In this document: piece after piece, positions 1,561 through 49,643 of the stretch
Layout: each line of letters starts with the position of its first letter
Numbering within the stretch: the stretch's first letter is position 1
Source: Candidatus Curtissbacteria bacterium RIFCSPLOWO2_02_41_11
GTDB taxonomy: Bacteria > Patescibacteriota > Microgenomatia > Curtissbacterales > GWA2-41-24
Length of the DNA stretch: 49,643 nucleotides
Direction: 5' to 3'
NCBI GenBank assembly: GCA_001775055.1
Contig: MFBU01000005.1
Span: 1 to 49,643, forward strand
Made by a program: the position numbers and the translations under genes
The notes under the pieces: model-generated
What the model saw: the letters and a program-made list of their open reading frames with translations, nothing else
What the model was told of the DNA's origin: nothing
Databases searched by the model: none

Positions 1561-3549
1561 ATGCCAATTATAAGACTGCTTTTTAATACCAAATTTCAGC
1601 TTGCTATCATTATTCTCTTGACGGTCGGCGTTTATGCTAACACATTTGGTAATCAATTGGTTTGGGATGATAAGACCTTCGCCGATTGGGAATTAACCGC
1701 AAGTTTTAAATCCTTGCCGCAATTTCTCAAAGGTGCACTGCCGCATCCCCATGAGGGGGATTATCGCCTCTTTAAAGGGATTATTTTAACCTTTGACAAA
1801 GTAGTATTTGCAAATTCCCTGTTTGTTTTTCACTTGCAGGCGATTTTAATTCATTTATCGGCGACACTTTTAGTCTATTTTCTGACAAAGAAGATCTTTG
1901 AACTAGAAACAATAAACGATAAACGAGAAACTGTGCTAAAAGTTTCTAGTTTCCAGTTTCCGTTTTCAGGTTTAGTCGCCTTTTTGACAGCTCTTTTATT
2001 TGGGGTTCACCCAGTCCATGTTGAGGCGGTTACATTTATAACTAGTAGCACGGATATTTTGGGCATTAGCTTTTTGCTGGCTGCCTTTTACTTCTACATC
2101 AGGGCAAGAAGTGAGTATCAATATCGAAAAAAGAGGCTGGCCATTAGCGGTCTTTTGGCACTGTTGGCCTTTGCCAGCTACGAGATTACTTTTATCCTGC
2201 CAGTGCTTGTAATTCTTTACGATTTCTGTTTTCCAATGAAAATTAAAGAGAGCGCAAAAGAGAGAATTTTTAGGCATCTTTATTTTTGGGGAATTTTGGC
2301 AAGTTATGCTGTTTTTCGGTTTGGGATTTTGAAATTAACCGAGAAAAGGGAATTTCTGGAGAACAGTTTTTATCTAACGATGTTGGCACAGGCAAAAGCA
2401 ATCTGGGAGTATATACAAATCATTGTTTTCCCATTGAATCTAACCATAAACCACAAACTCCCAAGCGGCATAAGCTCGCTTCACTATGTTGATTACAATG
2501 CGCAATCCTATCTTTCTCAGAAAATCACAGATTTATCTTTCTTATTTTCGGCAGCAGTCATAATCGGGGCAGTGGCAGCTGCTATTTTTTTATATAAAAG
2601 GTTACCGATTGTTACATTTTGTATATTTTGGTTTTTTGCCTCCATGGCAATAGTTTCCAATATTATTCCGCTTGGCAATTTTATGACAGAAAGGTATTTG
2701 TTTTTAGCATCGTATGGCTGGAGTCTGTTATTGGCATACATGGTCAGCCAAGTTGTTACTTCCAAGTTCAATCTCACAGTCAAATTCTCAGCTCTTAGTT
2801 CTTACCTTTCAGTTCTAGTGATGGTTTTAGCGGTGATAGGATTTACAACCATATTGGCTTTTTACTCAGTTAAGACATATCTGCGAAATCGAGACTGGCG
2901 TGATTCGTTTACCCTTTGGTCTTATGAATTGGCAAAATCTCCAGACAGTGTTCTGGCAAGTAATAATTTAGGCAATACCTATAAAGATAAAGGGGATTTA
3001 GCACGCGCCATTCAACTTTACGAGCGAGCAGAGGCTAAAAACTCAAGACGATTGAGCAAAGTTAACCTGAATCTTGGCGATGCTTATTGGGAAGACGGAC
3101 GCTTGGAGAAAGCCCTGGAGCAATATCAAAAAGCCATTGAGGCGGACAAGCGAGAGCCTTTGGCTTACTATGGCTTAGGTAGACTTTATGTGCAGCAAAA
3201 AAAGACTGACTTGGCGATTGAGGCATACACTAAGACTTTAGATTTAAACTCACTCTATTACCCGGCTTATATAGATTTAGGTGCCATTCTGGCCGAGACC
3301 GGCAAGCTGGATCGGGCGATTGAAAAGTTTACAATTGCAGCCAAAATAAAACCAGAGGAGGCCCTGCCTCACAGAAATTTGGCAGGTGTTTACAAGAAGC
3401 AGGGTAAACTTGATTTGGCAATTGCCGAATATCAAATGGCGCTTAAGCTTGATCCTGGAAATGAAGAGATAAAAAAGCAGTTACAAGAAACCCAAATTAG
3501 GCGCAATATCAAAATCAATCAAAATCAGCAAAAAGAAACAGAAAACTAA
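1561..3549 (+). CDS. TMTC-like GT-C membrane glycosyltransferase with C-terminal TPR repeats
   Basis: This 662-aa protein has an N-terminal polytopic half (about 9-11 helices to residue ~440) and about five TPR motifs from ~455 to 640 (for example ASNNLGNTYKDKGDLARAIQLYERA). The early loop after helix 1 carries FGNQLVWDDKTF, the acidic-pair position of GT-C enzymes. This arrangement matches the TMTC/DUF1736-type protein O-mannosyltransferase family, which transfers a sugar from a polyprenyl-phosphate donor on the outer face of the membrane. Residues ~115-137 (ETINDKRETVLKVSSFQFPF) are encoded by a 7-nt-periodic palindrome and look like an in-frame insertion in a loop. It sits between the surface protein and the exosortase, suggesting modification of sorted proteins (inference). 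Confidence 0.75.
   Translation: MPIIRLLFNTKFQLAIIILLTVGVYANTFGNQLVWDDKTFADWELTASFKSLPQFLKGALPHPHEGDYRLFKGIILTFDKVVFANSLFVFHLQAILIHLSATLLVYFLTKKIFELETINDKRETVLKVSSFQFPFSGLVAFLTALLFGVHPVHVEAVTFITSSTDILGISFLLAAFYFYIRARSEYQYRKKRLAISGLLALLAFASYEITFILPVLVILYDFCFPMKIKESAKERIFRHLYFWGILASYAVFRFGILKLTEKREFLENSFYLTMLAQAKAIWEYIQIIVFPLNLTINHKLPSGISSLHYVDYNAQSYLSQKITDLSFLFSAAVIIGAVAAAIFLYKRLPIVTFCIFWFFASMAIVSNIIPLGNFMTERYLFLASYGWSLLLAYMVSQVVTSKFNLTVKFSALSSYLSVLVMVLAVIGFTTILAFYSVKTYLRNRDWRDSFTLWSYELAKSPDSVLASNNLGNTYKDKGDLARAIQLYERAEAKNSRRLSKVNLNLGDAYWEDGRLEKALEQYQKAIEADKREPLAYYGLGRLYVQQKKTDLAIEAYTKTLDLNSLYYPAYIDLGAILAETGKLDRAIEKFTIAAKIKPEEALPHRNLAGVYKKQGKLDLAIAEYQMALKLDPGNEEIKKQLQETQIRRNIKINQNQQKETEN
1903..1969. 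repeat. Heptameric palindrome inside the TMTC-like coding sequence
   Basis: The left arm (1903-1932) carries AAAC every 7 nt (GAAACAATAAACGATAAACG). The right arm (1941-1968) carries GTTT every 7 nt (GTTTCTAGTTTCCAGTTTCC). The two are reverse complements in register, separated by 8 nt. The reading frame is kept. Confidence 0.75.
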
Positions 3550-47773: not shown

Positions 47774-47844
47774 TCGGCCGCCGATTTCGTAAATTTTAGC
47801 GCTTTTTTTATCCGCAAAAAACTGGTATACTGCCAGTTATCAAT

Positions 47845-47898
47845 GTCCAATGACCAAAACCCAAATTCCAAAAATTGGAGTTTGGAGTTTGGAAATTT
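47845..47898. repeat. 7-nt-periodic palindrome upstream of the S1-domain gene
   Basis: Left arm TCCAATGACCAAAACCCAAA and TTCCAAA; right arm ATTGGAGTTTGGAGTTTGGA. GGAGTTT/GGAAATT heptamers face CCAAANN units. The hairpin lies in the 5' leader of the S1 gene. Confidence 0.65.
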
Positions 47899-47934
47899 GT
47901 AATTGAAATTAAAAGATCAAGGAAGTGAGTATGA

Positions 47935-49152
47935 TTGTTAAAATCAAAATCCTCAAAACCAACGGGATCTTCTCGCGCTAAACCCTTCGGTAAAACTCAG
48001 GGTAAACCTACCTCAATGGAGGAGTTACTCGCCTCAAGCGGGTACCAAATTCCTTCAATTCGGCGTGGACAGGAAGTAAGCGGTAAAATCGTTTCGATTT
48101 CCCATTCGGAGATCTTAGTTGATATCGGCGCCAAAAGCGAAGGAATTGTTGCCAGCAGGGAAATGTCTTCTATCCGAGATATCATTTCCGGGCTTTCTGT
48201 GGGAGACACGATTGATGTGACGGTTATCTACCCGGAAAATGACGCCGGTCAAGTGGTGCTTTCAATGCGCAAGCTTTCGCAGGATGTCCGTTGGCAGGAT
48301 CTTGAGGATAAAAAGAATAGCGATGAGGAGATTGGAGTAGTTGCTCTTGAGGTCAATCGAGGCGGTGTAATCTGTGATTATACGGGACTGCGCGGGTTTT
48401 TGCCGGCTTCGCTGCTTACTAAAATCCCTTCGAATCTTGCCGATTTAATCGGTAAGAGCCTGACTGCTCGGGTTATTGAAGTTGACAGGCAAGGCAATAG
48501 ACTTATTTTTTCCCAAAAGCAGCCTGACACTAAAGATCTTAAGGCTATTGGCAAGCTTTTAGCGAAGGTCAAGATAGGCCAGAAGCTTGCCGGAGTGGTT
48601 AGCGCGATTTTACCATTTGGAATTTTTGTGGAAGTTAACGTAAACGGTAAAGAAGGTCAAGAAGGTAAGGATGGTTCGGAAGGTGAAAAATTGAAACCTT
48701 CTAAGTCTTCTCAACCCTCCCAACCTTCTAAATCTTCTAAGCTCGAGGGCTTAGTGCATATATCGGAGATTTCCTGGGAGAAAGTTGAAGATCCTTCCAG
48801 GCTTTTTAAAGTAGGGGATCGCGTCGAGGTAATGGTAATTGCTAAGGAAGAGGCAACCGGCAGGTTAAATCTGTCGATCAAACAGCTGGCTCACGATCCC
48901 TTTTTGGAAGCATCGGCGGCCTTTTCCAAAGACGAAGAGGTTACCGGCAGTGTAGCCAGAGTTACCCCTTATGGAGTTTTTATGACTTTGAAAAACGGGG
49001 TTGAGGGTTTTGTGCCTATCTCCAAAATTTCTCCAAACGAGAATTATCAAATCGGGCAGAAAATTACCTGTACGATTGAGTCAATCGATTCAAAAGCCCG
49101 GCGAATTTCGCTTTCGCCACTGGTTCGAGAAAAACCGATTTTGTATAGGTAG
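47935..49152 (+). CDS. rpsA: S1-domain RNA-binding protein (ribosomal protein S1-like)
   Basis: The 405-aa product has four S1/OB-fold repeats: GQEVSGKIVSISHSEILVDIG (about 45-110), a degenerate second repeat with GGVICDYTGLRGFLPASLL, a third starting GQKLAGVVSAILPFGIFVEV, and a fourth DEEVTGSVARVTPYGVFMTL (about 325-400). MEELLASSGYQIP ahead of repeat 1 is usual for compact S1 proteins. Repeat 3 is split by a 30-residue GKEGQEGKDGSEGE / KPSKSSQPSQPSK insertion encoded by a 9-nt-periodic palindrome. The start is uncertain: TTG 47935 follows GGAAG, but an ATG at 47931 opens a 16-codon peptide in another frame; ATG 48016 is a shorter option. It binds mRNA on the 30S subunit, by family. Confidence 0.85.
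   Translation: MLKSKSSKPTGSSRAKPFGKTQGKPTSMEELLASSGYQIPSIRRGQEVSGKIVSISHSEILVDIGAKSEGIVASREMSSIRDIISGLSVGDTIDVTVIYPENDAGQVVLSMRKLSQDVRWQDLEDKKNSDEEIGVVALEVNRGGVICDYTGLRGFLPASLLTKIPSNLADLIGKSLTARVIEVDRQGNRLIFSQKQPDTKDLKAIGKLLAKVKIGQKLAGVVSAILPFGIFVEVNVNGKEGQEGKDGSEGEKLKPSKSSQPSQPSKSSKLEGLVHISEISWEKVEDPSRLFKVGDRVEVMVIAKEEATGRLNLSIKQLAHDPFLEASAAFSKDEEVTGSVARVTPYGVFMTLKNGVEGFVPISKISPNENYQIGQKITCTIESIDSKARRISLSPLVREKPILYR
48647..48740 (+). repeat. 9-nt-periodic palindrome in frame inside the S1 gene
   Basis: Left arm AAGAAGGTCAAGAAGGTAAG has a 9-nt period (AAGAAGGTN). Right arm ACCTTCTAAGTCTTCTCAAC and CTTCTAAATCTTCTAAG has the complementary CTTCTAAGT unit. A period of 9 keeps the frame, giving Lys/Glu/Gly repeats then Pro/Ser/Lys repeats. 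Confidence 0.75.
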
Positions 49153-49159
49153 CAGCATT

Positions 49160-49275
49160 AGAAGTGGGAAGTTGGAAGTGAGAGGCTGGAAATTGATGTG
49201 AGAATTTTAAGAAATCGAATTATCCCACTTCGATAATCTAGCGTCGCATTTCTCACCTCTCACTTCTTGAAGTTG
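49160..49275. repeat. 7-nt-periodic palindrome between S1 gene and radA
   Basis: Left arm GAAGTGGGAAGTTGGAAGTG and AGAGGCTGG; right arm TCTCACCTCTCACTTCTTGA. The heptamers (AGTTGGA, AGTGAGA) face their complements across about 50 nt. Confidence 0.65.
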
Positions 49276-49283
49276 ATTGATTG

Positions 49284-49643
49284 ATGAAGATTCACTCTGA
49301 GTTTGTTTGCCAACAGTGTGGGTATCGATCTGCCTCATTTTTGGGCAAGTGTCCAAATTGTGGCGAGTGGAACTCGCTCGTTGAGCAGATCGCCCAGGAG
49401 CAGAAGTCGGAAAGTCGGATTCAGCAGGCAGAAGTGGAGCTTGTTAGGCTTGCCGAAGTTAAAAGCCAGAAGTTTCCCAGAATTGCGACTGGTTTTTTGG
49501 AGTTTGATCGGGTTTTGGGTGGCGGTATTGTTCCCGGTTCAATTGTTTTAATTGCTGGCGATCCGGGTATTGGCAAGAGTACATTGTTGCTGCAGACAGC
49601 AATGGTTATTGCTCGGGGTCCTGTCAGTCGTTTTCTTCCCGCC
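49284..49643 (+). CDS. radA: RadA/Sms DNA repair protein, 5' portion
   Basis: This open frame was missed by the ORF track because it runs off the window. Its 120 residues begin MKIHSEFVCQQCGYRSASFLGKCPNCGEWN, the four-Cys zinc finger of RadA (CXXC...CXXC). They continue through RIATGFLEFDRVLGGGIVPGSIVLIAGDPGIGKST, the Walker A motif. RadA is a RecA-like helicase that promotes branch migration in recombinational repair. After LLLQTAMVIAR the expected VLYVSGEES strand is replaced by GPVSRFLPA, whose DNA starts like the insertion at 5690 (GGGTCCTGTCA), so an in-frame insertion may begin here. The gene is incomplete at the window end. Confidence 0.9.
   Translation, partial: MKIHSEFVCQQCGYRSASFLGKCPNCGEWNSLVEQIAQEQKSESRIQQAEVELVRLAEVKSQKFPRIATGFLEFDRVLGGGIVPGSIVLIAGDPGIGKSTLLLQTAMVIARGPVSRFLPA

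What the first reader, a model, noticed from the sequence alone, without database searches (positions are those of the whole stretch)
48647..48740. Nine-nucleotide palindrome creates a low-complexity loop inside S1 domain 3
The arms have a 9-nt period and are reverse complements, so the first arm encodes Lys-Glu-Gly repeats and the second Pro-Ser-Lys repeats. It sits in a loop of an OB fold of an essential protein. Period 9 preserves the frame in unit steps, unlike the 7-nt class, which suggests selection on the period when in genes.
Basis: partly seen in the sequence, partly recalled or inferred. Interest (0 to 1): 0.7.

Follow-up and report, generated by a model that had tools for sequence, protein, structure and literature searches.

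The report
In-frame repeat hairpin in ribosomal S1
A short DNA hairpin built from 9-letter tandem units sits in frame inside a ribosomal-protein gene of a tiny Microgenomates bacterium; related genera carry different hairpins of the same design at the same spot and in loops of other core genes, so core proteins here seem to be repeatedly and tolerably invaded by repeat DNA.

Summary
Window 48652-48737 holds two arms of degenerate 9-nt units (NNNGAAGGT x4, then its reverse complement x5) inside the third of four S1 domains, in a 28-residue loop that AlphaFold2 models as disordered between two strands. Only the 6-nt cores pair; the 3-nt spacers do not. It is not a one-off. The genome (687 of 1,079 kb sampled) has 53 such periodic-arm palindromes (shuffled control: 1), mostly period 7 and intergenic. 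In the same family (Curtissbacteria-like Microgenomates), S1 orthologues carry palindromes at the same loop with other units: period 9 in five genera including this one, period 8 in two. RadA, Obg and TsaD show similar lineage-specific loop insertions. Period 9 is enriched in genes (4/8 in-gene, 3/32 intergenic, p=0.02), but periods 7 and 8 also sit inside conserved genes, and stop-codon survival alone would favour period 9 about twofold. So 'selection on the period' is only partly supported. Best reading: hairpin-forming tandem-unit repeats that spread, often locally, and survive in frame where proteins tolerate a disordered loop. They resemble Rickettsia palindromic elements in effect, but consist of periodic units that turn over.

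The parts
47935..49152 (+). gene for S1 RNA-binding protein (rpsA-like, 405 aa, four S1 domains), host of the element
   Evidence: Pfam PF00575, four stretches, E 6.4e-47; found in 11 family genomes
48652..48684 (+). left arm: four 9-nt units, core GAAGGT with 3-nt spacers; encodes EGQEGKDGSEG
   Evidence: sequence; detector hit; genome-wide unit pattern 68 hits against 8 for the reversed-pattern control
48685..48695 (+). short central loop of the palindrome (GAAAAATTGAA)
   Evidence: sequence and predicted fold
48696..48737 (+). right arm: five 9-nt units, core ACCTTC (reverse complement of the left core); encodes PSKSSQPSQPSKSS
   Evidence: sequence; predicted hairpin of helices separated by internal loops
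49160..49267 (.). intergenic periodic palindrome of the same kind, period 7, between S1 and radA
   Evidence: detector
47840..47906 (.). intergenic periodic palindrome, period 7, upstream of S1
   Evidence: detector; a very similar element stands next to the S1 piece of G006, L206 4967-5033
49281..49643 (+). radA (5' part in window); its loop just beyond the window end holds an assembly gap followed by a period-7 array
   Evidence: L001/L260 sequence

Best explanation
The S1 element is one copy of a large, heterogeneous family of dispersed hairpin-forming repeats in this Microgenomates lineage. Each has two arms of three to six degenerate tandem units, period 7, 8 or 9 nt, the second arm carrying the reverse complement of the first arm's unit. 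Shown: the family's abundance, periods, unit classes, in-frame presence at loops of conserved proteins, and different units at one and the same loop in different genera. Inferred: copies arise mainly by short-range, homology-assisted copying (template switching or ectopic gene conversion between hairpins, plus unit slippage), and a copy inside a gene survives only if the frame stays open and the loop tolerates a disordered, polar peptide. The S1 insert then has no S1 function of its own; its palindrome is inherited from the repeat family, not selected in S1.
For: Census: 53 periodic-arm palindromes in 687 kb of own genome, 1 in shuffled control; 64 more in samples of nine other family genomes. 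Same loop, different unit: S1 period 9 with different units in G000, G013, G009, G012, G008 and period 8 in G010 and G007; RadA loop p7 G000/G003, p8 G007, p9 G002/G006/G008/G012, other palindromes in G013/G014; Obg and TsaD loops lineage-specific. Both arms differ together between genera although they encode unrelated peptides. The S1 unit belongs to a genome-wide class clustered on one contig: S1 plus C5:100.8-126.6 kb, in frame in L7/L12, in an extension before a NusG-like ORF, and in other ORFs. Local copying: G002 has exactly two copies of CGTTTCGACARGTCGAAA, one in the S1 loop and one in the RadA loop 900 bp away, both in frame. Disordered loop in the model. Unit order is not mirrored between arms, and G-U does not exceed A-C mismatch on the sense strand, so no sign of selection for an RNA hairpin.
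Against: No clean empty site was found: the closest pair, G002 and G014 (83% identical in S1 DNA), shows no readable insertion boundary or target duplication. The degenerate unit GTAYCAMRR recurs in unrelated families of the class (19 of 187 genomes, reversed control 0), which local copying alone would not give and which hints at horizontal spread or a recognised motif. S1 loop arrays of several genera could descend from one ancestral insertion.
Confidence: 0.6

Rival explanations
1. The palindromes are non-autonomous mobile elements (MITE or REPIN type) moved in trans by a transposase, for instance a Y1/REP-associated tyrosine transposase, with the tandem units as recognition sites.
For: Y1_Tnp genes occur in 13 of 15 family genomes, two in the own genome. 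The GTAYCAMRR unit is shared, patchily, by distant families of the class. Elements lie in unrelated genes and intergenic regions.
Against: G012, dense in arrays (9 in 81 kb), has no detected Y1_Tnp at 88% completeness. Many unit classes with three periods and no fixed ends; no target duplication seen.
Confidence: 0.2
2. The hairpin is a selected nucleic-acid structure (mRNA stability, translational pausing, S1 autoregulation) and the peptide is a by-product.
For: Palindrome at the same S1 position in at least seven genera while units differ. Synonymous-shuffle z of -2.6 to -4.1 in L002, L003, L006 and L007.
Against: Synonymous-shuffle z only -0.9 in the window's own S1. Sense-strand mismatches are not biased to G-U: 31 against 52 A-C in genes; unit order not mirrored. 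G014 and G003 S1 have short loops without a palindrome, and the same arrays occur in unrelated genes.
Confidence: 0.1
3. Protein-level adaptation: a low-complexity charged or polar loop in S1 is selected (RNA binding, phase behaviour) and the palindrome is incidental.
For: Nearly all in-gene period-9 GTAYCAMRR arrays are read in the same frame pair (TTG/STT then RDT/LDT), as expected if the peptide matters or must at least be harmless.
Against: Charge and composition differ widely between genera (KEG/PSK, STT/RDT, GNQVIRQ/PDNQITR); other families of the class have 13-30 aa loops. The same peptides appear in RadA, Obg, transketolase and a glycosyltransferase.
Confidence: 0.08
4. Chance low-complexity coding sequence, or an assembly artefact.
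For: MAG assembly; the own radA loop contains a run of N.
Against: 1 shuffled hit against 53 real; the architecture recurs at the same loop in independent assemblies of other genera.
Confidence: 0.02

Closest known systems
Rickettsia palindromic elements (RPE)
   Same: Palindromic repeats of roughly this size dispersed in a reduced genome and inserted in frame into unrelated conserved genes; PMC10969869 summarises 44 insertions in R. conorii
   Different: RPE fall into families, each with its own sequence; here the arms are periodic arrays of short degenerate units with three periods and many unit classes, and the unit at one site differs between genera
Borg tandem repeats (aaTRs)
   Same: In-gene tandem repeats make disordered amino-acid repeats; in-gene unit lengths divisible by three against 14-38% of intergenic ones (PMC9879509)
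   Different: Borg repeats are perfect and head-to-tail; here units are degenerate, the array is inverted at its centre, and in-gene periods 7 and 8 also occur
Heptameric intergenic repeats (TAACTGA in Beggiatoaceae)
   Same: Abundant 7-nt units between genes (PMC4679880, abstract)
   Different: Those are direct repeats of one fixed unit; here the arrays are palindromic, of many units, and also in genes
REP/BIME/REPIN elements with RAYT transposases
   Same: Small palindromic repeats in many copies (PMC3116915, PMC2817692, abstracts); Y1 transposases are present in the family
   Different: No fixed REP-like end sequence seen; periodic arms; in-frame intragenic copies

Membership tests
Rickettsia palindromic elements (as a kind) | palindromic repeat inserted in frame inside conserved genes | tested here: met
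   S1, RadA, Obg, TsaD, GlmS, DUF72, transketolase, glycosyltransferases
Rickettsia palindromic elements (as a family) | fixed consensus sequence shared by copies | tested here: not met
   only short degenerate units are shared; several unit classes and periods
REPIN/RAYT | Y1 (RAYT-type) transposase in the genome | tested here: met
   13 of 15 family genomes, own genome two matches; none in array-rich G012; RAYT subtype not resolved
REPIN/RAYT | conserved REP motif and linkage to the transposase gene | not tested
   no conserved end motif stood out in the census; linkage was not examined
MITE | target-site duplication at the insertion | tested here: inconclusive
   G002/G014 comparison at S1 too diverged to read boundaries
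Borg-type aaTR | in-gene unit length divisible by three | tested here: not met
   10 of 20 verified in-gene arrays have period 9; seven have 7 and three have 8

The most novel reading that the evidence does not exclude
A sequence-agnostic process in Microgenomates builds hairpins from tandem units of 7-9 nt and repeatedly rewrites them in place, so that core proteins (S1, RadA, Obg, TsaD) carry fast-evolving, lineage-specific disordered loops written by repeat DNA.
Probability: 0.35. Interest if true: 0.8.

Novelty: new variant of a known kind. Interest (0 to 1): 0.62.

Why it matters
If right, reduced bacterial genomes host a class of selfish or mutational repeats that is not only tolerated in genes but recurs at the same permissive loops of core translation and repair proteins: a natural insertion-tolerance map and a source of new disordered regions. 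It also shows two arms differing together between genera while encoding unrelated peptides, which makes the generating mechanism directly testable with strain-level data.

Tried and rejected
Mirrored-arm test (does unit order in the right arm mirror the left?): no excess over permuted units, so one inverted duplication followed by divergence is not supported. RNA-level selection by G-U excess: opposite sign. Y1 transposase as the obvious mover: present in most family genomes but not found in array-rich G012. Empty-site comparison between G002 and G014: too diverged at the loop. History on the S1 tree: the four loop types need 5 changes against a minimum of 3, not better than shuffled labels, so neither one ancestral array with changing units nor repeated insertion is excluded. 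TIGR arrays, reported from parasitic bacteria (PMC12045711), were considered from the abstract only; no Tas gene search was done. Literature searches for palindromic or periodic repeats in Patescibacteria, CPR or Microgenomates found no description; the library lacks most subscription papers.

Full report
Observation. The stretch is as described, with two corrections. Between 48652 and 48684 the core GAAGGT (once GATGGT) occurs four times at 9-nt steps; between 48696 and 48737 its reverse complement ACCTTC (with one- or two-base variants) occurs five times at 9-nt steps. The cores pair, the 3-nt spacers do not: 24 of 32 aligned arm positions are complementary, and the predicted fold is a ladder of short helices separated by internal loops. 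Tandem Repeats Finder misses it because of the degeneracy. Against codon-order shuffles the fold is extreme (0 of 300); against synonymous shuffles it is not (58 of 300), because the peptide itself already fixes most of the cores.

Setting. The gene is a four-domain S1 protein, followed by radA. AlphaFold2 on an alignment of 19 sequences places residues 239-266 (pLDDT < 50) between strands 229-235 and 269-275 of the third S1 domain. Overall pTM is 0.47, so only the within-domain placement is used.

Relatives. The window's genome is G000 (1.08 Mb, 25 contigs). The contig that matches family member G010 is titled Candidatus Curtissbacteria, so this is a Microgenomates lineage. In the family, the S1 loop is 35-52 aa in nine of eleven genomes that show it (own included); in 17 members of other families of the class it is 13-30 aa (lengths counted from PFG to LEG). 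In most long loops the DNA is again a palindrome with periodic arms, but the unit differs: ATCAGG with period 8 in G010 and G007, GTACCACGA-like with period 9 in G009, G012 and G008, ACAAAGGGT-like with period 9 in G013. G002 and G006 have long loops without a clear periodic palindrome; G014 and G003 have short ones.

Not only S1. The RadA loop after the Walker A helix shows the same thing: period 7 in G000 and G003, 8 in G007, 9 in G002, G006, G008 and G012, non-periodic palindromes in G013 and G014. Obg and TsaD loops are likewise lineage-specific in length and sequence. Pfam hits that span or flank the array verify interior arrays in Obg, TsaD, a metallophosphoesterase, GT2 and GT1 glycosyltransferases, GlmS, DUF72 and RadA; the transketolase array lies in the linker between two of its domains. 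L20 and L7/L12 carry arrays as N-terminal extensions.

Genome-wide. A detector that asks for complementary arms, both with the same period, finds 53 elements in 687 kb of the own genome (39 with period 7, 10 with period 9, 3 with period 8, 1 with period 6), and 1 in a block-shuffled control. Nine other family genomes, sampled in part, hold 64 more, from 0 (G002, 94 kb) to 23 (G006, 225 kb). The S1 unit class (three GARGRT cores at 9-nt steps, up to two mismatches) has 68 matches in the genome against 8 for the reversed pattern, concentrated on contig C5 at S1 and at 100.8-126.6 kb, where some are in frame (L7/L12, an extension before a NusG-like ORF, others) and some are not. A second class, GTAYCAMRR, has 38 matches in the own genome, 0 in the control, and occurs patchily in 19 of 187 genomes of the class.

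Mechanism. Four facts bear on it. (i) At one loop the two arms differ together between genera although they encode unrelated peptides. (ii) Unit order in one arm is not mirrored in the other, so variants are not shared position by position; the arms look like two samples of one unit pool. (iii) Mismatches on the sense strand are not biased to G-U (31 G-U, 52 A-C in genes), so RNA pairing is not visibly selected. (iv) G002 has a short palindromic piece in exactly two places, the S1 loop and the RadA loop 900 bp away. I infer short-range copying between hairpins plus slippage, filtered by reading frame and by tolerance of the loop. The inference is not shown directly: no recent empty site was available. 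A Y1 transposase is present in 13 of 15 family genomes and remains a rival mover.

The period claim. In the own genome 4 of 8 verified in-gene arrays have period 9 against 3 of 32 intergenic ones (p = 0.02); over all sampled genomes without S1, 5 of 14 against 5 of 79 (p = 0.006). But 7 of 20 verified in-gene arrays have period 7 and 3 have period 8. In a simulation of random palindromic arrays, at least one of six frames stays open in 69% at period 9, 34% at period 7 and 32% at period 8, so survival alone gives about a twofold advantage. The verified list was assembled by me and is small; a few classes of unit, not independent draws of period, underlie it. The published parallel is the Borg case, where all in-gene units are divisible by three (PMC9879509).

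Reading frame. Nearly all in-gene GTAYCAMRR arrays are read in one frame pair, giving T/S/G/K-rich then R-D-T/L-D-T-rich peptides, in unrelated proteins; the L20 extension is an exception in its first half. This fits purifying selection for a polar, disordered insert. The own Obg array even matches arrays in RadA and S1 of other genomes at the protein level.

Limits. Gene context was scored with a codon-usage model of my own; thresholds of the detector are ad hoc; genomes are MAGs; 64% of the own genome was sampled; the family holds only 15 genomes here.

Noticed in passing
window 49643 onward (L001/L260, radA loop): The window ends at an assembly gap of seven N inside radA, directly before a period-7 array (TGTCAATTGTCAATGGTCAAATGTCAAATGT).
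   Followed up: partly
window 1901-1972: Period-7 periodic palindrome inside a 663-aa ORF whose C-terminal part has TPR repeats.
   Followed up: partly
window 47950-48020: S1 N-terminus reads SSRAKPFGKTQGKP, resembling a second kind of dispersed repeat peptide (PFGKAQGK/SGQA type) seen in the S1 N-termini of G007, G010, G003 and in S1 domain 2 of G008.
   Followed up: no
L330 (G049, another family): The S1 loop of the same domain carries a different, GC-rich insert (PARSPTRRASGLREQASGPGGKGEA), so the loop is used independently elsewhere.
   Followed up: partly
L150 10549-10995, L153 14860-15381: Ribosomal proteins L20 and L7/L12 carry period-9 arrays as N-terminal extensions; whether these are translated depends on the start site.
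   Followed up: partly
L127 7441-7502, L127 8095-8194, L149 11458-11519: Near-identical period-7 GTATCTA/GTATTTA palindromes lie just before pilin-like N-methylation motifs in several genes.
   Followed up: no
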